Under the pieces are notes generated by a model, which saw only the letters and a program-made list of their open reading frames with translations, was not told where the DNA came from and searched no databases. The translations under genes and the position numbers were made by a program. Positions 3,482 to 29,606 of a stretch of 64,000 nucleotides of DNA are shown here, piece by piece. The DNA is from Pseudomonadota bacterium. Its GTDB lineage: Bacteria; Myxococcota_A; Bradymonadia; Bradymonadales; GCA-2716585. Every line of letters starts with the position of its first letter. Within the stretch, counting starts at the first letter, position 1. The stretch is from the NCBI GenBank assembly GCA_005804885.1, contig SYOX01000083.1:30457-94456 (forward strand), written 5' to 3'.

Positions 3482-3599
3482 GGGGCCGCCAGACGGGCGT
3501 CAAGGCGGGCACAGTAGCACAGGCTGCGCGGGCTGATTGCGCGGATCGCGCATGTTGTGGCAGGGTTCGGGGGGAGTCAGCTCAAGCCGAGAGCGTCGG

Positions 3600-5753
3600 A
3601 TGGGAGAAGCCGGGACAGGGGCCTATGGGCCGGGGGAGTCGATGCTGGATCAGCTCGCGCGGGTGCGCTTGTGGCTGGCGAGGCACCAGATCCTGTATGC
3701 GGAGCGGGAGCTGCATCCGGACCCGAGATCGCGGCACATGTTCGTCAGCGACGCCGAGTTCAGGGACACGCTCAGGGCCGAGGGGCCGGATCACGCGGCG
3801 CTGGAGGCGATAGAGCGTGAGCTGGAGGCGCTGGCGGGGCGCATCGAGGCGCGGGTCGAGGAGACGCTGATCGAGGGCGGCTCGGCGCCGCTGGAGGAGC
3901 TCCGGGCGGCCTTCCGGCTCAGCGACGTGGAGGTGGACGTGATCGTGGCGCTGGCGGCGCCGGAGATCGAGCAGCGGCTGGCCAGGGCCTACACCAACGC
4001 GTGGAGCGACTTTACGCTCAAGCAGGTCGAGGTGGCCTTCCTGATGGAGCTGCTGGGGCCGACGTGGGCGCGGCAGCAGGAGCTGCGCGAGGCGCTCTCG
4101 CTGGGGAGCCGGCTGGACGAGTACCTGCTGATCCACAGCTTCGGGAGCGACAAGTGGGCGCCGGACACGCCGCTGCTCTATCGGCGGCTGAAGCTCTCGG
4201 ACAGGCTCGTGGACTTCCTGTTGACGGGCCGGGGGGAGCGCCTGGATCGGGGTCTGGGGCGCTCGGCGAGGTTGGTGGCGGCGGGGCCGGGGGCGCTCGA
4301 CGGGCTCTTGATGCCGGAGGAGATCAAGCGCGGGCTGGTGCGGGTGTTGAGCAACAGCGCGCGGGAGCGGGGCGCGCGGGTGGCGCTGATCAGCCCGCCG
4401 GGTTGCGGGCGCAAGTCGCTGGCGGCGGCGCTGGCGGGGATGCCGGGGCGGCGCCTGCTGGTGCTCGACGCGCGCAGGCTGCCGCAGTCGGCGGCGGAGC
4501 TGGAGGTGGTGCTGCGGACCGCGCTTCGGGACGCGCACCTGGCGCGCGCGGACCTCTACCTGGATGTGCCGCCGTCGTTCTGCGACGACAGGCTGGCGCC
4601 GGAGGCCCGGCAGGCGCTCATCGACCTGCTGGGGTGGATGCCGGGGACGGTCTACATCGGCGCGGAGGTGGAGCCGGAGTGGCTCACGATGGTGTCCGGC
4701 GTGATCGTCTTCCGGCTGCCCTTCCCGACCGTCGAGGTGCAGGAGGCGCTCTGGCGGCGGCAGCTGGCCGGCCACGCGACGCTGGATCGGGACATCCCGC
4801 TGGAGGTGCTGGTGTCGGCCTACTCGCTCAGCGGCGGCGCCATCGAGATCGCCGCGCGCGAGGCGATCCACCAGTCGAGGGTGACGGGGGCGGGGCGCCA
4901 GGTGGTGATCTCGCGCTCGACGGTGACGGCCTGCGCGCAGGAGCAGCTCTCGCACCGGCTGGGCTTGCTGGCCGAGAAGGTCACGCAGATGTTGACCTGG
5001 AACGAGCTGGTGCTGCCGGACAAGACGATGAACGTGCTCAAGGATCTGGTGGCGCAGTACCGCAACCAGAACCGGGTCTTCAACGAGTGGGGCTTCAACA
5101 CCAAGGTGGCCTACGGTCGGGGGCTCACGGCGCTCTTTCACGGGCCGCCGGGCACGGGCAAGACGATGGTGGCCGGGATCATCGCGCGGGAGCTGGGCCT
5201 GGAGCTGTACAAGATCGACTTGAGCCGGGTGGTCGACAAGTACATCGGGGAGACGGAGAAGAACCTGGGGCGGATCTTCGACGAGGCCACCCGCTCGCGG
5301 GCCATCCTGCTCTTCGACGAGGCCGACAGCCTCTTCAGCAAGCGCACCCAGGTCAAGTCCAGCCACGATCGCTACGCCAACCTGGAGACGAACTACCTCC
5401 TGCAGCGCCTGGAGAGCTACGAGGGGGTGGCGCTCTTGACGACGAACTTCGAGGCCTCTCTGGACGAGGCCTTCAAGCGCCGGCTGCGCTTCAAGATCGC
5501 CTTCCCCTTCCCGGACGCCAAGGAGCGCGGCGCGCTCTGGGAGGCGATGATGCCAGGGCAGGCCTATGTGGAGGGGCCGCTGGACTTTGGGGGGCTCGGC
5601 GAGCATTTCGAGATGACCGGCGGGCACATCAAGAACGCGATGCTGCGAGGGGCCTTCTCGGCCGCGCAGCAAGGCAGCCCCATCACCGCCAGCATCCTCT
5701 ACGAGGCCGCCACGGAAGAGTACCGCGAGATGGGCAAGCTGGTCCGGTCCTGA
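3600..5753 (+). CDS. CDC48-like AAA+ ATPase with degenerate first AAA module
   Basis: C-terminal module LFHGPPGTGKTMVAGIIARELGLELYKIDLSRVVDKYIGETEKNLGRIFDEATRSRAILLFDEADSLFSKR; N-terminal half has the weaker SPPGCGRKSL. ORF opens at 3537; in-frame Met near 3600. Confidence 0.85.
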   Translation: MGEAGTGAYGPGESMLDQLARVRLWLARHQILYAERELHPDPRSRHMFVSDAEFRDTLRAEGPDHAALEAIERELEALAGRIEARVEETLIEGGSAPLEELRAAFRLSDVEVDVIVALAAPEIEQRLARAYTNAWSDFTLKQVEVAFLMELLGPTWARQQELREALSLGSRLDEYLLIHSFGSDKWAPDTPLLYRRLKLSDRLVDFLLTGRGERLDRGLGRSARLVAAGPGALDGLLMPEEIKRGLVRVLSNSARERGARVALISPPGCGRKSLAAALAGMPGRRLLVLDARRLPQSAAELEVVLRTALRDAHLARADLYLDVPPSFCDDRLAPEARQALIDLLGWMPGTVYIGAEVEPEWLTMVSGVIVFRLPFPTVEVQEALWRRQLAGHATLDRDIPLEVLVSAYSLSGGAIEIAAREAIHQSRVTGAGRQVVISRSTVTACAQEQLSHRLGLLAEKVTQMLTWNELVLPDKTMNVLKDLVAQYRNQNRVFNEWGFNTKVAYGRGLTALFHGPPGTGKTMVAGIIARELGLELYKIDLSRVVDKYIGETEKNLGRIFDEATRSRAILLFDEADSLFSKRTQVKSSHDRYANLETNYLLQRLESYEGVALLTTNFEASLDEAFKRRLRFKIAFPFPDAKERGALWEAMMPGQAYVEGPLDFGGLGEHFEMTGGHIKNAMLRGAFSAAQQGSPITASILYEAATEEYREMGKLVRS

Positions 5754-8349: not shown

Positions 8350-8760
8350 TCAGACCAGGGTCGGGCTCATGGAGAGGCGGACGTTGAGGACGCCCTCGAA
8401 GTCCGTGGAGACGAACTGGGCCTTGATGTAGTTGATGCCTCGCAGCGAGAGTTCAAAAACCTCCTCGACGTCGGTGTCGGAGGCGGCGTCGAAGACGAAC
8501 GTGAGGGCTGCAGCGCCGATGGGCGGGAAGTTCATCTTGTCGATGGACTGCAAGAGGGAAAAGGTGAATTTATTGTTGCCAGAGCCCGAGAAGGGCTTGT
8601 TGTCGGTGACGATGCGCAGCCTGAAGATGGCCTCGTTGATCGGGCGCACATCGAGGGCATCCTGATTGCGCGGCGTCCAGGACTGGGGAGCCAGGAGAGT
8701 TCCGGCGGGATGGCCCAGTGTGATCTGTTGATAGGGCAGCACGACGATGGCCATGGTCAA
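8350..8760 (-). CDS. Small PYQxITLG-family paralog C
   Basis: 136 aa; IVVLPYQQITLGHPAGTLLAPQSWTP, shared with the two genes just upstream. Confidence 0.75.
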   Translation of the reverse strand: MTMAIVVLPYQQITLGHPAGTLLAPQSWTPRNQDALDVRPINEAIFRLRIVTDNKPFSGSGNNKFTFSLLQSIDKMNFPPIGAAALTFVFDAASDTDVEEVFELSLRGINYIKAQFVSTDFEGVLNVRLSMSPTLV

Positions 8761-8778
8761 CCTCCGAGGGTGGCTTGG

Positions 8779-9174
8779 TCAGTTGTTCTTCTTCAAGGTC
8801 ATGACGGCCTTGAAAGCGATGGTGCCTTGAAAGTCGACTGATGTCAGTGTCACACGCAGAAATCGTGCGAAGTCTGATGCCGAGGCGAGGATGTCCTGAG
8901 TGAACACACCCCCTCCGGTGACGTTGACGGTCTGGGTGTCAAGCGGGGGAAAGTACTGCTTGTCGTTGGAATGCTGCAGATCGATGGTGAAGGACAGGCT
9001 GCCTGCGGGGGGGGAGAGGGTTTCGACGAAGTACTGGATGGAGACCAAGGTGTGGCCCAGGGCATCGTAGGCCTTCTCGGCGGGGGGGGTCCAGGACGAG
9101 GGGGCCGTCCGGGTGCCCCCGAGGTGGCCGAGGGTGATCAACTGGTAGGGCACGATCTCAACGATGGTGGTCAT
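8779..9174 (-). CDS. Small PYQxITLG-family paralog B
   Basis: 131 aa; TIVEIVPYQLITLGHLGGTRTAPSSWTPP; tandem with paralogs A and C. Confidence 0.75.
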   Translation of the reverse strand: MTTIVEIVPYQLITLGHLGGTRTAPSSWTPPAEKAYDALGHTLVSIQYFVETLSPPAGSLSFTIDLQHSNDKQYFPPLDTQTVNVTGGGVFTQDILASASDFARFLRVTLTSVDFQGTIAFKAVMTLKKNN

Positions 9175-9239
9175 GGGCTCCTCAGGCGTTGGGGCCTGGT
9201 CGCGGGGCGACGCCAGGCACGTTGATGCTCACCGTTTGC

Positions 9240-9887
9240 TCACCGTTTGCTCAGCTTGAGCAAGACTCTGAGAGCGAAGGTCTCAGGATCCGAGTTGAAG
9301 GAAACGAGTCGAGGTCGAAGGTAGCGGGCGAACTCGGCGATGTAGCGGGGGGTCTGGACGTTGATGGTTCCGCCGCCCGCAGTGATCGGCGTTTGAACCT
9401 TTGAGGAGGGGATCTCCTCGAAGACGAGGTTGTCCTCCGCGTGATCGACGGCAAACAACAGCCCACCGGGGTGGCTGCCCGTGGTCGGGACAAGCGCCTG
9501 GATGCTGACCTGGAGGATCCCGAAGTTGTAGCCTTCGGCGTCCACCGACTCCTCCCTGGGTCTGGCCCAGGTGTTGGGCGTCAAGCTCCCGCCGCTCCCT
9601 CCCAGTGTGATGGTCTGGTAGGGGATCAGTTCGATTTCCATGTCATCACCTTTTTGACGGCTCTTATAGGTCATGTTCTCAGATCCCTCAAGAGCCGAGT
9701 CCACATTGGGAGAGAGCGCTGCATGCGCGGTCTCTCCATTCGCCTCACTGTCGAGTTTTCGAGCCAGCCTCTCGATCAAGATCTCTCGCATCAGCCCGAA
9801 GCTGAATGAATTTTTCCGATCAGACCCCAAAAGTCTTGTCAAGAGGGCATCCACGGCACCCATCGCCTCGTTCCGGCTGTCTTGCAT
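9240..9887 (-). CDS. PYQxITLG-family paralog A with possible N-terminal helical extension
   Basis: ATG at 9887 preceded by GGAGG; alternative ATG at 9641 preceded by AAGGTGATGAC gives a 133-aa protein MEIELIPYQTITLGGSGGSLTPNTWARP matching paralogs B and C in size. Confidence 0.7.
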   Translation of the reverse strand: MQDSRNEAMGAVDALLTRLLGSDRKNSFSFGLMREILIERLARKLDSEANGETAHAALSPNVDSALEGSENMTYKSRQKGDDMEIELIPYQTITLGGSGGSLTPNTWARPREESVDAEGYNFGILQVSIQALVPTTGSHPGGLLFAVDHAEDNLVFEEIPSSKVQTPITAGGGTINVQTPRYIAEFARYLRPRLVSFNSDPETFALRVLLKLSKR

Positions 9888-9909
9888 GTCGGCGCCCTCC
9901 GGCTTCACC

Positions 9910-12900
9910 TTATCCTTGAGTTCGGTTCAGCATCCCCCAGATACTTGCAATTTGTTGGTTTCTTTCACCAACGTCAAGACTAGTAGTAGTTCCTATAACC
10001 TCAAAATTGATACTCAGCCAACGCTCAAACGTCCGCTCAAAAGATCTCAACCACATATCGCCCCTCACGCCAGAGTCAAAGCCAAATCTCAACCCTGCGA
10101 GGTTTAGATTGTTGTCGATTCCAAAAGCTTCTCTGCCAATAAATTCGTCCGGCAATCTTTCGGCGAGAATATTTCGACATCCAATAAACACGACCTGATT
10201 CGGATCTGATGGTTTTATCCCCCCGGTTCCGATAGCGGAATAAACAATCTCCGGATACAAGTCCTCCGATACGTTATTTTGGTTTGTTGGCTCTTGCCCA
10301 AACATGAACAACCGAGACTGCCTCACATGACTGGCGGGCGTTGCACTATGGCGAAAAACGTTAAAATGTAAATACTCGCGACTGTTGATCGTCAATCCAT
10401 CCAATGACGCATTAAAAAATATCCCCAAGCTGTTAGCACTGTTAAGGGATAGGGCCAGCTTAGAGTTAAAAGTTGACTCGCTAACAAAAATCTCCCCCCC
10501 CGTCACATGCAAGCCCTGATCAAAATCTTCGTGAATGTGGCATCCCGTCACAACCAACCGATTTGACTTGCTCGAACTCATTCCATAAATCGCCACAAAT
10601 TTGCTGAGTTGCTGTCTGTTGATTCTTCGAAGACCCTCATCCAAAGGCACCCCGTCAGGGCGAAAGCAGCAATTGACAAACTCAAGATGCTGAACATTTT
10701 CTGGGTCATTAGGAATCAAGAGATTGTATAAACCTCGAGCGTTCCGCCTTGTCTGAATTTCGACAGGGTTGTTTCCATCAGTGACAATGTTGAGATCGTC
10801 AATGACAACATTCGGATCCTCGACGATCGAGAAAGAGCAGTTTTGAAATGTGACGTTGTAAGGATTGATGATCCGACCGAACTCGCCTGCATTATGAAGT
10901 CCTGTAGCAATCCCGCTGTTCATCACTCGAACCGTCGAACCGCTGGCGCTGAGGTTGAAGGGTGGCGCATCGGATTGAACATTGTTGAGATACGCGGCGG
11001 CACCTTGTTTGAGGCCAATGTCCAAATCACCGTCCCTTAAGTGAATGTTTTCGCCCAGGAAACGTGAGGGCACGGCCCCATCCAGCTCGATGTCGATCCC
11101 ACTGCTCAGGAAGACATCCCCTCGTGCGATGTTTCGACCCTCAGTGGTCAAATTCTGGACCATGGCGTCCGTGGTCGCAGAGCCAGTCAAGGTCAAGCCC
11201 CCACGGAAGCAGTTGACTGTCTGGCAATCGGAGATCTGAGCCAGAGCATTACCCGCCACTGAAAAGCCATCGCCGCCACTGTTGTGAATAAAGCACCCTT
11301 GAAGGTTGATCAGCGCCTTACCCCGTTGCGCACCCATAAAGACCCCACTCATAAACTCCATCTGAAACTTCTCGAAACCCCTTCGATCACCATCATCGAT
11401 TAGAGATGAAAGATTCATATCAAAGTTAAATCCAAAGATGGAGAACAGACTAGAAGTTTTTAAAGGTTGATCATATGTCTGCGTTGTAAAACATCTGCCC
11501 AGATTAAACTGTCCATTATGGGTCAGCCTTGGACCCACCCGATTTTCATAATCTTCAAGGGCCACCGCTTCATTGATCACGGCCTCATTGAGGCAAGAAA
11601 TTATCCTGTTATTGCGATCATCGACGCTGACCAGACCATTAAGATCACATTCGATCCGTAATCGATTCGGGCCAATCATCTGTCCCGAAAGGTCTGGTTT
11701 TAGAGAGAGCTTCATCGAAGCTTCAATCACCGACTGCAAACTAATCAAATCCAACCTGATATCACTTTCTGGAAGAACCTGGATGAAGTCGCCTAATCCC
11801 CCAGCCACGCCTCTCACATTTCCTATGTCTAGGGGAGCGGGCGGGACATTAAAGCTTCTTAATCTTGCTGAAAGCTCGTTAAATACCGGAGTCGAATCCG
11901 CCTGGTGCCAATTGGATTGAGGGTCCAACTCGCCAGGGTCCAATTCGCCACGATGAAAATCAAATTTGGATCTTATCTCATTTGCGAACTCAGAGAGGCG
12001 CGCCAGATCTGTTTCATTATCATCGAGGTTTGCAGTAATTACCTGATCGCTGATATCGCCCTTGTGAAGGTCTTGAGCCGAAATGTGGCCGTTAAAGTCA
12101 TTTTTAAGAGCTATAAGAAGTGTGCGGACGGCTTCCGCTGTATCAAGAGGAATCTCTAAAGCATTGCCTGGGATGCTCTGGTGTGTTGTGTCCTTGGCTA
12201 TAGCTGAATCATTCCTTCTAAATTGAAAAGATCCACCATGAAGGGCAAGGCCAATCGACCCGCCAAACCGCCGCTGAACCACCTGGCTGTTGCGGTGTAA
12301 GTGGAGCACTACCCGAAGCTCGTTGGCAAGCCGCGCTATGCTCCCCAAGTCCGCCGTAGCCTCCAGCTCTGGAAGAACCTCCGAGGACGCCTGGCGGATC
12401 ACGGCCCCCAAACCGTCGTAGGTCAGACCCTCTTTTAGGTGAACCTCCGTGACCGTAAAGGTTCCCCGGAACTTGATCGTCTGCCCCAGCCGACCGCCGC
12501 GCTCTAAACGGGCGGCATCAGCGGCATTGACACAAGCCTGGATCGATAACGTCGTCGGTGTGATGCGCTCAAACTGCCACACGGTGTTAGGTGGAGTACC
12601 ACCGACCCTGTTCATCGTGACCATGGTGGACTCGGCCACACCACTCGCGGCACCCCACCATTGCGGGTAAAGAACCCCGTTCTTCAAAGGAGCTCGAACT
12701 TGCCGGGTGTCTCCCCTCACCCCACGCCACTCCTCTCCCCCAAAGATTCGGTAAGGCCCGGCCTGAACGTAGCCATGGATGACCGTCTCATAGCCATCGC
12801 CAATCGGTAAAAGTTGAGCGCCTGGATCGAAGACCAGCGTGATGTTCTCGTGAAACGTGACTGCGCTCTCAATTCGATATGTACCAGGAGAGAAGTAGAT

Positions 12901-13047
12901 GGTGCCTCCTCCAGCATCTTGCACGCTATCTGACAATGCCTTCAAACCAATGAAGTCGTTATGAGAACCATTGCCAAGGACAGGCTCATCAGGCACCAAA
13001 CGACTGTTCTTGGCGAAGTACCACTGGCCTTCAAGAGACATGATCAC
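9910..13047 (-). CDS. Large right-handed beta-helix (pectate lyase/tailspike-like) protein
   Basis: ~1045 aa; GGGTIYFSPGTYRIESAVTFHENITLVFDPGAQL ... VIHGYVQAGPYRIF ... LYPQWWGA, then N/G/S-rich beta-helix rungs; no N-terminal signal peptide visible. Confidence 0.75.
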   Translation of the reverse strand: MIMSLEGQWYFAKNSRLVPDEPVLGNGSHNDFIGLKALSDSVQDAGGGTIYFSPGTYRIESAVTFHENITLVFDPGAQLLPIGDGYETVIHGYVQAGPYRIFGGEEWRGVRGDTRQVRAPLKNGVLYPQWWGAASGVAESTMVTMNRVGGTPPNTVWQFERITPTTLSIQACVNAADAARLERGGRLGQTIKFRGTFTVTEVHLKEGLTYDGLGAVIRQASSEVLPELEATADLGSIARLANELRVVLHLHRNSQVVQRRFGGSIGLALHGGSFQFRRNDSAIAKDTTHQSIPGNALEIPLDTAEAVRTLLIALKNDFNGHISAQDLHKGDISDQVITANLDDNETDLARLSEFANEIRSKFDFHRGELDPGELDPQSNWHQADSTPVFNELSARLRSFNVPPAPLDIGNVRGVAGGLGDFIQVLPESDIRLDLISLQSVIEASMKLSLKPDLSGQMIGPNRLRIECDLNGLVSVDDRNNRIISCLNEAVINEAVALEDYENRVGPRLTHNGQFNLGRCFTTQTYDQPLKTSSLFSIFGFNFDMNLSSLIDDGDRRGFEKFQMEFMSGVFMGAQRGKALINLQGCFIHNSGGDGFSVAGNALAQISDCQTVNCFRGGLTLTGSATTDAMVQNLTTEGRNIARGDVFLSSGIDIELDGAVPSRFLGENIHLRDGDLDIGLKQGAAAYLNNVQSDAPPFNLSASGSTVRVMNSGIATGLHNAGEFGRIINPYNVTFQNCSFSIVEDPNVVIDDLNIVTDGNNPVEIQTRRNARGLYNLLIPNDPENVQHLEFVNCCFRPDGVPLDEGLRRINRQQLSKFVAIYGMSSSKSNRLVVTGCHIHEDFDQGLHVTGGEIFVSESTFNSKLALSLNSANSLGIFFNASLDGLTINSREYLHFNVFRHSATPASHVRQSRLFMFGQEPTNQNNVSEDLYPEIVYSAIGTGGIKPSDPNQVVFIGCRNILAERLPDEFIGREAFGIDNNLNLAGLRFGFDSGVRGDMWLRSFERTFERWLSINFEVIGTTTSLDVGERNQQIASIWGMLNRTQG

Positions 13048-14999
13048 ATAGCCTCATATGGTAAAAAGTAGATTTTCTCGTCTCTCGGGCGATCGTCGTC
13101 AGAGCCGGCGCATAAGTAGAACAGGCCGTGGTCTGGATTAAAACCTATGCATCCGCCAAGATTTCTAGCCTCATCCGTCAAAACAATATCTGCACTATCC
13201 ACCCGATATATCGATGGGGCTACAGGTCCGAAAAACACGTAAGTCCTGATCTTGTCGCCCTCAAATCTGCCCGTAAGAAACAAATCGCCAAATCCGTCCC
13301 TATTAATGTCTTTAGAGGCTAAATTGTATCCCACTTTCTCTCTCTCTATACCCCATCCGATGAAAGAAATATTTATGTCCTCGGAGTATGTTAGCTGTGC
13401 AGGAGGTCCAATAATTAGGTATGTGCGACCGCGATCATACCCACTGGGCGATGTCAGCATTAAATCGTCGAAACCGTCGTTATTTTGATCCTCAACGACT
13501 ATTGCCCTATTACCAAGAGCGGATCCAATGTTGCTACCTGCGACAACAGCATTGGCGCCGTCCAAACGATACCTGCCTTCCAATGGACCATAAAAGAGAT
13601 AGGCTCCGCCCTGCACCAAAATATTTGTGGGTCGGCTTCCTTCAGCCCCAATCAAGATATCCGCGATCCCATCGCCATTGACGTCCCCTGAGTTGATGGG
13701 AGCACTCCCAGCGTTAGTGGCGGAGTCAAACTCAAACATGGCATCGGCTTGAAGAAGCTCCGTTCGCTCTCGGAGCGGATTCAGCCACAGAGAAATACGA
13801 CCCCTTAAAGTTGACGTAAAGACAAAATCATCGGCTCCATCATCATTAATATCTCCTAATGAGTTGATGCCTGATCCGCTTATTAATGAGTTAGGAAGAT
13901 AATCAATACGCCAATCAGGCTCGTTAACCCTTAAACAATCGAGGAGGCCTTCATGATAATGATCGCAATAAACCCCTTCTTGCACAGGGCCGAAGTAGAT
14001 GCTATATCCAAGATAGTGATCGCTCGAAGCAACAATTACATCGTCGTATTGATCGCCATTAATATCTCCGAGCCCAACTTTAGCCGTTCTTTGAGCAAAA
14101 TACACCTGGGCTTCACCAGCAAGGCTAATCTCTCGATCTCGGGGAAAAGGCCCGTACATCAAGAACGCACTTGAGGGGATGTCATTCTCCACCAGGATGT
14201 CAAAAAATCCATCGTTGTTAACATCACCTGTCGCCAAAAACGAAGTGGTAGAATAAAGATCGATGTCCCTGAAGGTGTGTACCGCATAGTCCTGTACCTG
14301 TCTCGTTCGAGAGGCCACGCAAGCGGGCTCACCCGCACAGATGACCGTTTCGGTGTCCGTGCAGATATAATGATTACAGCCCCGACAAGACGAGCCTGGC
14401 TCGTGGGCCAGCTCCGCGCAGCCTCCACAGGCATTGATGCGCTCATCTTCACAGCGCAGCGCGTTGTTCCCGTCGCACTGCAAGGTCCCATTCGAACAAA
14501 GACCACAAGGGCTGCCTGGTTCTTGCTCCAGTTGGGACTGACCACCGCAAGCATTCAAGACCACACGGGCATCAGGCTCCACGTCAGCGAGATCAACGGC
14601 GGCATCTGTCTGGGCGTCTGGAACCCCTGGCTCTTCGTCGCTGGAGTCCAAGGCATCTGCCACCATGCTGTCGAGAACCTCAGCGTCCATGTCGCCCGAG
14701 TCAAAGACCTCCATTCCAAGGTCTGGCCCAACGTCCAGCACCTCCGTTTCTCCATCGCCTGGGTCAACCACGACATCCACCAGAGCGTCTGGGCTCTCAA
14801 CATCTCCATCGTCGGGATCGTCCGCATCGCGTGGCGTGTTCGATACATCCGGCTCCACCGCACCCGAATCCAACGAACGCTCTCCTTGGCTCGTTGGCGG
14901 ATCCGAACACCCCGCAGTAGACCAGCCAATCAAAAGCAAGCTCAGGGCCATCCGCCAAAGCGCAAATCCGACTCGTTGACTCTGAAGAAACCTTTTCAT
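13044..14999 (-). CDS. FG-GAP/VCBS (integrin alpha-like) repeat lipoprotein with Asp-rich linker and Cys-rich module
   Basis: Lipobox LIGWSTAGC; D/E/V-rich linker; repeats GDVNNDGFFDILVEND, GDINGDQYDDVIVASSD, GDINDDGADDFVFTS, GDVNGDGIADILIGAEG, DQNNDGFDDLMLTS, DINRDGFGDLFLTG. Confidence 0.85.
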   Translation of the reverse strand: MKRFLQSQRVGFALWRMALSLLLIGWSTAGCSDPPTSQGERSLDSGAVEPDVSNTPRDADDPDDGDVESPDALVDVVVDPGDGETEVLDVGPDLGMEVFDSGDMDAEVLDSMVADALDSSDEEPGVPDAQTDAAVDLADVEPDARVVLNACGGQSQLEQEPGSPCGLCSNGTLQCDGNNALRCEDERINACGGCAELAHEPGSSCRGCNHYICTDTETVICAGEPACVASRTRQVQDYAVHTFRDIDLYSTTSFLATGDVNNDGFFDILVENDIPSSAFLMYGPFPRDREISLAGEAQVYFAQRTAKVGLGDINGDQYDDVIVASSDHYLGYSIYFGPVQEGVYCDHYHEGLLDCLRVNEPDWRIDYLPNSLISGSGINSLGDINDDGADDFVFTSTLRGRISLWLNPLRERTELLQADAMFEFDSATNAGSAPINSGDVNGDGIADILIGAEGSRPTNILVQGGAYLFYGPLEGRYRLDGANAVVAGSNIGSALGNRAIVVEDQNNDGFDDLMLTSPSGYDRGRTYLIIGPPAQLTYSEDINISFIGWGIEREKVGYNLASKDINRDGFGDLFLTGRFEGDKIRTYVFFGPVAPSIYRVDSADIVLTDEARNLGGCIGFNPDHGLFYLCAGSDDDRPRDEKIYFLPYEAM

Positions 15000-15005
15000 C
15001 GACGG

Positions 15006-16806
15006 CTATTCCTGGTGGATCCTGGATAAAGCGGCCCACTGTGTTGAGTTTGATGTGCTGGTTCCTGATTGGACACACACCCACTCGTAGTCCTGACCAA
15101 CTCGCGGCGTTGTCAACCTCCAGATATCGCCCTTCAGACCTGCATCTGATGCCCGGGGTTCAGACGTTCCGTAAATCAAGCGCTGTCCAAGCGAATTGAT
15201 CAATCCTATGGGTGGGCCATGAATGATGTTTTCTTCATTGGTGAGCGTTGTCGAAAGATGTGTGATCTTGATTCGTCTTGAATCACTGAGGAAAGACAGA
15301 TAAGCAACACCTTCGTCGTCGGCCAACCTGGACAACTTCACATGGCCAATTCTAAGCAATGCTTCCGCCGTTGGATGAGCTAAAACTTCAATTCCAACTC
15401 TGGACTCCAGCAAGATTCCGTGGATCGTCGCCCTCAATCCGCACTTATAAAAAAGAATTCCCTTGTGAAGACCACTTCCAAATCTACAGTCCTTGATTGA
15501 GAGTTCGCTCTGGCTAGAACTTGTGCCGACCGAAACTATACCAATAAAGGTGTCTGTCAGCTGAATATTGTCAGAATTGTCCGACATTAAAAATTGACAA
15601 CTCGCAAGAGATATATACCCTTTGGCGTCTTCGGATTCAGGCCAAGCGAGCGTGAGCGCTGTCACAGCCTTGCTTCGCGAACCCGCGCCACGATGAATTA
15701 TGAAATCACAATTAGCGAGCGAGTAAAAATTTGACCCCGTGATTAGCGCTGATTTGTGAATATTGAATTCACAATTAGAGAACTTTGCCCTTCCTTCATC
15801 TCCTTTTAAGGTGAGCCCGTTGGACAATGTATTGGTAAACAACAGAGATGCCTGGTTGAATTGTGCTTCAATAGAACCAAACATTGAATTGCTGATAAAA
15901 GCCGTGCCGAATTGATCCTCTCCCTCCGGGACCAGTGAAAGCGACTCCAAGCGCAGTGTACCATCACACACAAAATTAGAAACTTGAAGGGACGTACCGT
16001 CAAGCATCCCATGAATCGAAGTGGCAACACCAAAAGCACGGCTGTTGATGACTTGTAACCGGAGCCCAGCGAGCGCCGTCAAGCCGACAAGGGAAGAATT
16101 CATAAAAGAGCAGTTGGACACCAGAACGTGGACTGGAAGATCTCCGGGCTCCAGAGTCAGTAAGCTCGTAGACTCAACATCATCAGAATCAATGTTGCCA
16201 AGATCGTCTTGATCGCCAAATGTGAATCCATAAATGGTGGTCAAGAGAGATAAGTCGACAGTGTGTGTCGCGATACGTGATGGCGAGAGATCCGTAAATC
16301 TCCGTGCCTTCTCCAAGATAGGTCTTCCCAAAAGGAAGTCTGACTGTTCTGCTGAACACATACTGACCAGAGATGAACCGAATGATTCCTGGGCCGCGCG
16401 GGAGGCTCTTGAGCATGAAGCTCATCCCACTGCTGTTCCCATCCGCAAGTGATTGAATGTTGTCGTTGACGCCAGAAAGTACCGATACACCCCACCACTG
16501 AGGGAAAATCTCGCTCCTGTGATTCCCGAGGCGAAATTTCCCACTTCCAGATGTTTGAAAGATTTGGTGAGGACCCGCCTGAATGTGGCCATGAATCACA
16601 ACAATGGCATTGCTGGCAACAAGAGTGGCTGCTTGATCAAAAATAATCTGAACGCTTTCGGGTATGTCGATGGAGGCTGTCAGAATGTGAGTGCCGTTCG
16701 AGAGAAAGACTGACCCCCCCCCCCTTTGCAAAATTCCGCCAATAACCCTCCGAAGAGATATCTCACTCTCGCCACCAGAGGGTATAATGTTCCAGAATTC
16801 TGCCAT
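15006..16806 (-). pseudogene. Second right-handed beta-helix protein, interrupted by a frameshift near 16240-16265
   Basis: 5' part (ORF 16189..16806) has GGGSVFLSNGTHILTASIDIPESVQIIFDQAATL ... VIHGHIQAGPHQIF ... IFPQWWGV; 3' part (ORF 15006..16361) continues as beta-helix in a frame offset by one nt. Confidence 0.65.
16714..16724. repeat. Poly-C/poly-G homopolymer (11 nt) in the coding region of the second beta-helix gene
   Basis: + strand gaCCCCCCCCCCCttt; read as AGG GGG GGG GGG (RGGG) on the minus strand. Confidence 0.9.
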
Positions 16807-27491: not shown

Positions 27492-29606
27492 ATGACCGCA
27501 CCCACCAAGATCGCCGGGGTTCTCCGCTTCCTCAACGCCAGCAAGTCCAAGGCCGCCGCCGCGATCCCCGACAAGAAGACGAACACCATCGACCCCGACG
27601 GCCTCTCGCGCCAGGGGACCGTCCTGAACATCGACGCCGCCGCCGAGGACTTCGATCGGTGCTTGCGGGCGGCGAAGGGGATGGCGACCGAGGCCACGAT
27701 GGGCAAGATCGTCGTCCGCCAGGATGGGGAGCGGCCGCGGCTCTGCTGGGTCCACGCCGGCGGCCAGGACGAGGCCCGGCTCCACCCCGACGACCCCCGC
27801 TTGCTCCTGCGCCTCGGCGACGACGCGCTCCGCATGGAGGGCCTCGGCGTCCAGTGGTCCGGCCTCTCGCCGGACGGCCGCCGCGCCGCCATCGGCGGCT
27901 ACAACGGCACGCTCTGGCTCTTCGACCTGGAGCGCGGCGAGCTGGAATCCCGGCTCATCGGCCACAAGGGCCACCTCACCTGCGGGGCCTGGGGCGCCGA
28001 CGCCCTCTTCACCGGCGAGCACAAGCCCGCCCAGCTGATCCGCTGGGGGCTCGCCGACGGCTCCCGCAAGGCCCGCGCCGTCAAGCAGCTCATGGGCGTC
28101 GCCGTCGGCGCCAAGGGCGCCTGGGTGATCGCGGCCGTCCACCGCGGCCCCGAGGCGCCGGTCTTCGACGGCGACACCCTCGCCCCCATCGCCTCCCTCG
28201 GCGGACACCACAAGGCCGCCTGCGCCGTCGCCGCCTCCCCCGACGGCCTCAACGCCCTGACCTTCGACGAGGACGCCACCCTGCGCGTCTGGAGCGCGGC
28301 AGACTGGTCCTGCACCGCCACCGTCAACATCAAGGATCACCTCGGCTACCGCGCGCGCCTGGACGACATCAAGTTCCTGCCCGGCACCCGGATCGCCGCC
28401 CTCCAGCGCGGCGGCTCCCTCGACAACCCGACCCTGACCTTCGACCTCGACACCCACGCCCTCTCCGACACCACCCGCATCAAGAGCGCCTTCATCGACA
28501 TCCACCCCGACGGCCTGCGCGCCATCGGCGCCGGCAGCAGCCTCCAGAACGACGATCGAGGGCAATCCTATTACCAGGGCCACGTCATCGACATCGCACG
28601 CGGGCAGGTCGAGCGCGCCATCGAGCCGGCCCAGAAGCGCGCCTTCTGGCGCCGCGGGCACGACCAGGCCTTCTTCGAAACCGCCAACGGGCTCGCCGGC
28701 CACGACCCGGACACCGGCCTGCGCCTGCCCGGACACGAAGGGCACCTCGGCGCCATCGACGGCCTCGCCTTCTCCCCCGACGGCCTGCGCCTCGCCTCAG
28801 GCTGCCGACACGACCGCTCCCTCCACCTCTGGGACCTGAACACCGGCCGACCCGTCGCCCGCCGCGTGAGCACCTGGGGCAACTTCCACCAGATCGCCTG
28901 GACCCCCGACAGGCTCGCCGTCCGTACCAGCAACTACGGCCACGGCGAGCTCCTGATCCTCAACCCCGACGACGCCGCCACCCTCGCCAGCCTCAAGGCC
29001 ACCCAGTCCCCCTTCGCGCCCATGGCCCTGTCCCCCGACGGCCGCATCGCCGCCGTCGGCAACACCACCGACAACATCTCCATCTTCGACCTGGACACCC
29101 TCCAGCCCCTCTGGCACATCCGCCTGCCCACCAGCAAGCTCACCGACAAGGACGAGGCCAGAGTCCTGACCTTCTCGCGCGACGGCGCCCTGCTCATCGC
29201 TCTGCTCACCTCCGGGCGCGTCGCCGCGTGGCGCCTCGACGATCAGAGCGGACCGACCCTCTTTGACACCCAGGGCGGCTTCCCCTCCCACCTCTGCCTC
29301 CTGCCCGATGGCCTCCACCTGGCCGTCTGCGCGCGCTCAAGCGTCGACCTCCACGCCCTCGACGGCGGCCTGCGCCTCGCCTCCATCCCCACCCCGTCCA
29401 GACCCTGCGCTCTGGCCGCCCACGGCGACACGCTCGCCGTCGCGCACCACCAGAGCCCCACGATCCTCCTGATCACCGACCCCCTCGGCGCCGCCAGCCG
29501 ACGCTCGCTCGACGGACACGCCGCCGACGCCCTGGCCTTCTCCCCCGACGGCGCGCGGCTGGCCTCCGGCGGCTGCCGCGGCGACATCGCCATCTGGTCT
29601 CTCTAA
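27492..29606 (+). CDS. WD40-repeat beta-propeller protein
   Basis: Repeats such as HEGHLGAIDGLAFSPDGLRLASGCRHDRSLHLWDL and LDGHAADALAFSPDGARLASGGCRGDIAIWSL; start inferred at 27492. Confidence 0.85.
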   Translation: MTAPTKIAGVLRFLNASKSKAAAAIPDKKTNTIDPDGLSRQGTVLNIDAAAEDFDRCLRAAKGMATEATMGKIVVRQDGERPRLCWVHAGGQDEARLHPDDPRLLLRLGDDALRMEGLGVQWSGLSPDGRRAAIGGYNGTLWLFDLERGELESRLIGHKGHLTCGAWGADALFTGEHKPAQLIRWGLADGSRKARAVKQLMGVAVGAKGAWVIAAVHRGPEAPVFDGDTLAPIASLGGHHKAACAVAASPDGLNALTFDEDATLRVWSAADWSCTATVNIKDHLGYRARLDDIKFLPGTRIAALQRGGSLDNPTLTFDLDTHALSDTTRIKSAFIDIHPDGLRAIGAGSSLQNDDRGQSYYQGHVIDIARGQVERAIEPAQKRAFWRRGHDQAFFETANGLAGHDPDTGLRLPGHEGHLGAIDGLAFSPDGLRLASGCRHDRSLHLWDLNTGRPVARRVSTWGNFHQIAWTPDRLAVRTSNYGHGELLILNPDDAATLASLKATQSPFAPMALSPDGRIAAVGNTTDNISIFDLDTLQPLWHIRLPTSKLTDKDEARVLTFSRDGALLIALLTSGRVAAWRLDDQSGPTLFDTQGGFPSHLCLLPDGLHLAVCARSSVDLHALDGGLRLASIPTPSRPCALAAHGDTLAVAHHQSPTILLITDPLGAASRRSLDGHAADALAFSPDGARLASGGCRGDIAIWSL

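What the first reader, a model, noticed from the sequence alone, without database searches (positions are those of the whole stretch)
8350..9641. Three tandem small paralogs defined by an N-terminal PYQxITLG motif
Three consecutive genes encode ~131-136 aa proteins (counting paralog A from its 9641 start). All share (E/V)(I/L)xPYQxITLGxxxGT/S...W near the N-terminus and beta-rich bodies. I cannot assign a known family. Divergent tandem copies downstream of beta-helix proteins suggest a dedicated structural or ligand-binding role, perhaps specificity subunits or decorations of the beta-helix protein.
Basis: partly seen in the sequence, partly recalled or inferred. Interest (0 to 1): 0.75.

Follow-up and report, generated by a model that had tools for sequence, protein, structure and literature searches.

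The report
Phage-head-like jelly-roll proteins in effector operons
Three neighbouring small genes in a myxobacterial genome encode sister proteins that resemble proteins tailed phages make next to their capsid protein, and relatives elsewhere in the phylum sit directly in front of very different large enzymes or beta-helix proteins, so they look like a reusable structural part whose exact job is still unknown.

Summary
In detail: three minus-strand genes (A 9240-9641, B 8779-9174, C 8350-8754) encode ~133-aa paralogs sharing PYQxITLG. They match no Pfam family. AlphaFold models of B and C are single jelly rolls; B superposes on the BPP-1 phage cement protein (Z 10.7, 2.5 A, 109 residues). Profile searches place them in a divergent family found in about 20 of 377 genomes of the phylum. 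That family is profile-related to phrog_5707, a phage protein encoded just after the major capsid protein in all seven phage records read. In the bacterial loci no capsid genes were seen. Instead 1-4 jelly-roll genes (J) usually precede, often by under 10 nt, a large protein without an obvious signal peptide (E: beta-helix, beta-lactamase-fold hydrolase, HExxH putative metallopeptidase or M23 peptidase), often followed by a lipoprotein (L). Near-identical J genes accompany unrelated E genes, so J is the constant part. The beta-helix link is real in this genome (three loci) and one other, not general. I infer a phage-derived jelly roll reused as an oligomeric carrier or anchor for E. Fold and kinship are well supported; function is inferred.

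The parts
9240..9641 (-). J protein A, 133 aa, jelly-roll family member
   Evidence: ORF; Shine-Dalgarno at 9641; E 2.7e-5 to a profile from other genomes; 36% identical to B
9642..9908 (-). in-frame upstream extension of A (89 codons), probably not part of the J domain
   Evidence: open frame; GC3 0.64 vs 0.81 for A; in-frame extensions also precede the first J gene at C419, C205 and C333
8779..9174 (-). J protein B, 131 aa, jelly roll
   Evidence: AlphaFold model pLDDT 80.8, pTM 0.73, eight strands; VIA-align Z 10.7 to BPP-1 cement protein 3j4u_H; top of 422 window ORFs with the leave-out profile
8350..8754 (-). J protein C, 134 aa (from ATG 8754), most divergent of the three
   Evidence: BLASTP to B E 8e-14; AlphaFold model pLDDT 76.8, same strand order; VIA-align Z 7.8 to YomS
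9910..13047 (-). long beta-helix partner, 1045 aa, no obvious signal peptide, LYPQWWG
   Evidence: Pect-lyase_RHGA_epim E 3.8e-5, below cut-off; phrog_2234 tail spike E 7e-8; homologous to long beta-helix proteins of C419 (E 7e-11) and C205 (E 8e-13)
13044..14999 (-). FG-GAP beta-propeller protein with lipoprotein-type N-terminus, 651 aa
   Evidence: PF01839 E 8.8e-20; N-terminus ends in TAGC; RCC1-propeller lipoproteins hold the place between the two beta-helix genes at C419 and C205
15006..16361 (-). 3' part of a short beta-helix gene, 451 aa frame
   Evidence: Beta_helix E 7.7e-4, below cut-off; overlaps the next part in another frame
16189..16806 (-). 5' part of the same short beta-helix gene, 205 aa frame, with FPQWWG
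   Evidence: E 3.8e-6 to the 635-aa beta-helix protein of C419; gene split by a frameshift or an assembly error

Best explanation
A, B and C are single-domain jelly-roll proteins of the same superfamily as a phage head protein encoded in the capsid-decoration slot (phrog_5707). In this bacterial phylum the jelly roll (J) has been reused as the constant part of a short operon: one to four J genes, then a large protein without an obvious Sec signal (E, here tailspike-like beta-helix proteins), usually then a lipoprotein (L). Shown: paralogy, predicted fold, kinship to the phage family through the wider bacterial family, tight operon arrangement, constant J with changing E. Inferred: J subunits assemble into a small oligomer, possibly of different paralogs, that carries or anchors E on a surface or particle outside the cytoplasm by a non-Sec route, and L is the membrane partner or protector.
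For: Fold; 3j4u_H has the highest sequence identity (17%) among the top VIA-align rows. Kinship: hhalign of the 7 phage proteins against the bacterial family Prob 96.5, E 8e-10; window trio against members from other genomes Prob 96, E 4e-9; reversed and column-shuffled controls score 16.5 or less against 48-60; 9 of 35 members hit phrog_5707, best 2e-7. Phage slot: within three genes after the MCP gene in seven phage records, and in a prophage of this phylum (L087). Operon: J-E gaps mostly -19 to 79 nt. Constant J, variable E: J of L053 and L054 are sisters with short branches but precede an HExxH protein and a beta-lactamase-fold protein. Lipoprotein-like gene after E in 9 of 14 against 33 of 301 background, p 7e-6. 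CxC in the E N-terminus 7 of 10 against 1 of 42 other large genes, p 7e-6.
Against: No experiment shows oligomerisation, export or contact with E. The window trio alone barely matches the phage profile (hhalign 9.7-16.7%); the link runs through the wider family. Jelly rolls are common, and several unrelated chains score as high. Some J genes have no neighbouring E (L051, L052, L057, L060, L061, L064). In the window the J genes follow rather than precede the beta-helix genes, and the beta-helix partners lack the CxC N-terminus. Signal-peptide absence rests on a crude hydrophobicity scan.
Confidence: 0.42

Rival explanations
1. J proteins are ligand-binding modules (carbohydrate-binding or lectin-like jelly rolls) that help E stick to its substrate.
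For: Foldseek and VIA-align lists contain CBM4, CBM6, CBM22 and CBM36 chains and the BC2L-C lectin domain (Z 9.2); two J domains are followed in the same ORF by what looks, by eye, like a LamG-type domain (L049, L050; no Pfam hit for the L049 one).
Against: Apart from the start Met, the one nearly invariant residue is the Arg of the F(L/A)RYLRW strand, with no conserved surface aromatic cluster seen; sequence kinship points to phage head proteins, not CBM families; no Pfam CBM hit.
Confidence: 0.2
2. J-E-L are antibacterial effector operons: E is exported by an eCIS or T6SS, J is its loading adaptor, L is periplasmic immunity.
For: E includes M23 peptidases and beta-lactamase-fold hydrolases; lipoproteins follow E with overlapping ends; a DcrB/DUF1795-like gene lies between J and the M23 protein in L049 (E 1.5e-5, 25.5 bits, just under the 27.2 cut-off), and DUF1795 proteins are T6SS effector chaperones (PMC7773334, listed); the eCIS marker Pvc16_N occurs in 15 of 20 J genomes against 126 of 357 others, p 6e-4; this genome has an eCIS cluster (C403) and no VipB hit.
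Against: J loci and eCIS loci lie on different contigs; the eCIS association is confounded by kinship (families f21 and f26 supply 13 of the 15); no known effector tag was found; beta-helix plus propeller lipoprotein is not a typical effector-immunity pair.
Confidence: 0.2
3. J proteins are accessory or specificity subunits of the neighbouring beta-helix protein.
For: Own-genome loci C20, C419 and C205 combine J genes with short and long beta-helix proteins; G340 has two J genes before a beta-helix protein.
Against: Most J genes of other genomes have other partners.
Confidence: 0.12
4. The genes are leftovers of a prophage head module with no own role.
For: Kinship to phage head genes; reduced GC of the island (GC3 0.48-0.53 for the beta-helix and lipoprotein genes).
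Against: No capsid, portal or terminase gene seen beside them; the gene set is repeated at sibling loci in one genome and the J1-J2-J3 order is kept between C419 and C333; frames are intact and a J trio is conserved between two genera (L049, L050).
Confidence: 0.06

Closest known systems
phrog_5707, phage head-module protein (e.g. PPpW-3 ORF7)
   Same: length 115-134 aa, conserved (K/R)(F/Y)(V/L)R strand; profile-profile Prob 96.5-97 with the bacterial family
   Different: phage copies sit beside MCP, portal and head-closure genes; bacterial copies sit beside enzymes, beta-helix proteins and lipoproteins, often in tandem
BPP-1 cement protein Bbp16 (PDB 3j4u)
   Same: jelly roll, 140 aa, Z 10.7, rmsd 2.5 A over 109 residues, 17% identity; top hit of the trio profile in PDB sequences, but only E 0.5
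   Different: sequence relation not significant; Bbp16 binds an HK97-type capsid as dimers (PMC3863775)
XepA and YomS, Bacillus subtilis prophage proteins (PDB 6i56, 6i5o)
   Same: jelly roll, Z 10.6 and 9.5
   Different: pentamers from phage lytic cassettes (PMC6834076); no such context here

Membership tests
phrog_5707 phage head proteins | significant profile match | tested here: inconclusive
   window B E 0.0095, A and C none; own-genome C419 copy E 2e-7; family against family Prob 96.5
phrog_5707 phage head proteins | gene next to the major capsid protein | tested here: not met
   no capsid gene among the window neighbours examined
BPP-1 Bbp16-type cement proteins | single jelly-roll domain of about 130-140 aa | tested here: met
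BPP-1 Bbp16-type cement proteins | binds an HK97-fold capsid | not testable with these tools
   needs a particle; no capsid gene nearby
XepA/YomS | jelly-roll pentamer from a lytic cassette | tested here: inconclusive
   fold alike; oligomeric state not testable; no lysis genes recognised beside the locus
any Pfam family | match over the curated cut-off | tested here: not met
   no hit for the three at E up to 1; only scattered single hits among 35 members
T6SS effector module | T6SS in the same genome | tested here: not met
   no VipB match at E 1e-10 or better in this genome (83.6% complete)
eCIS cargo | linked to an eCIS locus or carrying a known cargo tag | tested here: inconclusive
   eCIS cluster present on another contig, C403; cargo tags not tested

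The most novel reading that the evidence does not exclude
J-E-L is an undescribed modular export or delivery system in which a domesticated phage head decoration-type jelly roll is the universal adaptor that carries unrelated Sec-less enzymes and tailspike-like beta-helix proteins onto phage-tail-like or other particles, with a dedicated lipoprotein as partner or immunity.
Probability: 0.2. Interest if true: 0.85.

Novelty: new variant of a known kind. Interest (0 to 1): 0.6.

Why it matters
It gives a fold and a kinship to a family without a Pfam entry, and links it to phage genes in the capsid-decoration slot. It exposes a recurrent operon in which that jelly roll is constant while the large partner changes, including a putative metallopeptidase family that Pfam does not recognise. 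If J is a carrier, this would be a phage-derived way to export or display enzymes in a phylum rich in predators.

Tried and rejected
Pattern scans of viral contigs with A1, A3 and one relative, and of genome contigs with A1, found no new relatives; genome contigs with A3 returned only the contig already seen, which named it as a Myxococcales MAG. tblastn of B and C and of relatives in phages, and of B in plasmids, gave only chance hits. My first lead, DUF6385 (recalled from memory), was not supported: no Pfam family matched more than one of 35 members. Bacillus phage Pookie, the best BFVD hit, belongs to phrog_10590 and did not match by profile, so it was dropped as a fold-only match. A Pvc15-like AAA ATPase near the window locus was considered as a link to eCIS and dropped: the genome has eight copies, and the other seven are on contigs without known J loci. 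Apparent long fusions (1567-aa frame in L086, 513-aa frame in L061) look like in-frame read-through upstream of a normal J start, not domains. No paper on these genes was found.

Full report
OBSERVATION. The three ORFs exist as described. PYQ.ITLG occurs only in them in the whole window. Pairwise identities are 27-36% with E 5e-9 to 2e-20. A probably starts at 9641, although its frame is open to 9908; C probably starts at ATG 8754. None of the three matches Pfam at E up to 1.

FAMILY. A profile of the three found weak relatives in the same phylum. One, L013, is a tandem array of four ~130-aa paralogs from a Myxococcales MAG. Adding these and one more sequence gave a profile (A2) that matched 21 of 377 genomes of the phylum, including three further loci in the window's own genome, and one more genome in a second search. 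At most 11 candidates per genome were scored in the phylum search, so this is a lower bound. A profile from 27 members of other genomes ranks B and A first of 422 window ORFs (E 1.6e-5 and 2.7e-5; next 3.6), and profile-profile alignment of the trio with those members gives Prob 96, score 53, against control scores of 16.5 or less. C is linked through A and B.

FOLD. AlphaFold models from seven-sequence alignments have pLDDT 80.8 (B) and 76.8 (C) with the same strand order. B's best matches are the projecting jelly roll of IBDV VP2 (Z 10.8), the BPP-1 cement protein (Z 10.7, 109 of 140 residues, 17% identity) and XepA (Z 10.6). C's matches are similar but lower, and BPP-1 is not among the rows shown. 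Jelly rolls are common, so the fold alone proves no kinship.

PHAGE KINSHIP. Nine of 35 members hit phrog_5707, best E 2e-7; a structure hit, PPpW-3 ORF7, is a phrog_5707 member (E 1e-34) and is the only phage ORF the bacterial profile picks out of two phage genomes (27-30 bits, next about 6). hhalign of seven phage members against the family gives Prob 96.5, E 8e-10, reproduced with members from other genomes only (Prob 97) and against reversed and shuffled controls. In the phage records read, this gene lies shortly after the major capsid protein and, where the neighbours are annotated, before head-closure or tail-attachment genes. A prophage of this phylum has jelly-roll domains fused to a Mu gp36-like connector after a predicted capsid gene (capsid assignment by eye). 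The window trio by itself matches the phage profile only weakly.

NEIGHBOURHOODS. The own genome has five J loci: C20 (window), C419, C205, C333 and C53. C419 and C205 carry J genes, a short beta-helix gene, an RCC1-propeller lipoprotein and a long beta-helix gene; the window carries the same kinds of gene in a different order, with an FG-GAP propeller and a split short beta-helix gene. C333 ends at the contig edge after three J genes; C53 has two J genes alone. In other genomes the gene after J is most often large, close and on the same strand: beta-lactamase-fold proteins (L054, L055, L090, L094), HExxH proteins with mutual homology but no Pfam hit (L053, L058, L059, L063, L015, L091, L095, L097, L098), M23 peptidases (L049, L050) or a beta-helix protein (L088). 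These partners lack a strong hydrophobic N-terminus by a crude scan, and 7 of 10 have a CxC in the first 130 residues against 1 of 42 other large genes, p 7e-6. A lipoprotein-like gene follows in 9 of 14 against 33 of 301, p 7e-6. These tests treat loci as independent, which is only partly true.

EVOLUTION. In a 55-row tree all 13 own-genome copies group together and the window trio is a clade (98/94), so it arose by local triplication separate from the trio shared by C419 and C333. C is a long branch. J of L053 and L054 are close sisters with unrelated partners.

MECHANISM. The data best fit a structural, oligomeric J subunit that is constant while E varies: a carrier or anchor. eCIS occurs in 15 of 20 J genomes (the prophage-bearing G372 set aside) against 126 of 357 others (p 6e-4), but most of the 15 are from two families, so kinship may explain it. 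A DcrB/DUF1795-like gene lies in one J-M23 operon, just under the family cut-off. This genome has an eCIS and no T6SS hit. The export route stays open.

LIMITS. The genome is a draft (83.6% complete, 6.6% contaminated). Gene calls in the fetched loci rest on a simple GC-based picker. No experiment supports any function.

Noticed in passing
G000:C403 (L084), Pvc16_N at 28051-28545: The own genome carries a contractile-injection (eCIS-type) cluster with two sheath genes, tube-like and baseplate-like genes.
   Followed up: partly
window 3537-5753 +: AAA ATPase with an N-terminal winged-helix domain (PF22977), about the size and layout of Pvc15; eight copies in the genome.
   Followed up: partly
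window 15006-16806 -: A beta-helix gene split over two overlapping frames, homologous at its 5' part to an intact ~635-aa gene at C419: frameshift or assembly error.
   Followed up: partly
L053, L058, L059, L063, L015, L091, L095, L097, L098: A mutually homologous set of HExxH proteins with no Pfam match, several with Cys-rich N-termini: a possible new metallopeptidase family.
   Followed up: partly
L087 6136-7374 (G372 prophage): Tandem jelly-roll domains fused to a Mu gp36-like connector directly after a predicted capsid gene.
   Followed up: no
window about 9.9-16.8 kb: Sharp drop in GC3 (0.48-0.53 against 0.93 for the neighbouring glutamyl-tRNA synthetase-like gene), suggesting a foreign or fast-evolving island.
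   Followed up: partly
L049:7035-7643 -: DcrB/DUF1795-like gene between the jelly-roll genes and an M23 protein with membrane-like stretches (by eye).
   Followed up: partly
C419, C205, C333 (L062, L070, L071): The in-frame region before the first J gene holds a CxC stretch in three own-genome loci, like the CxC N-termini of the E proteins elsewhere.
   Followed up: no
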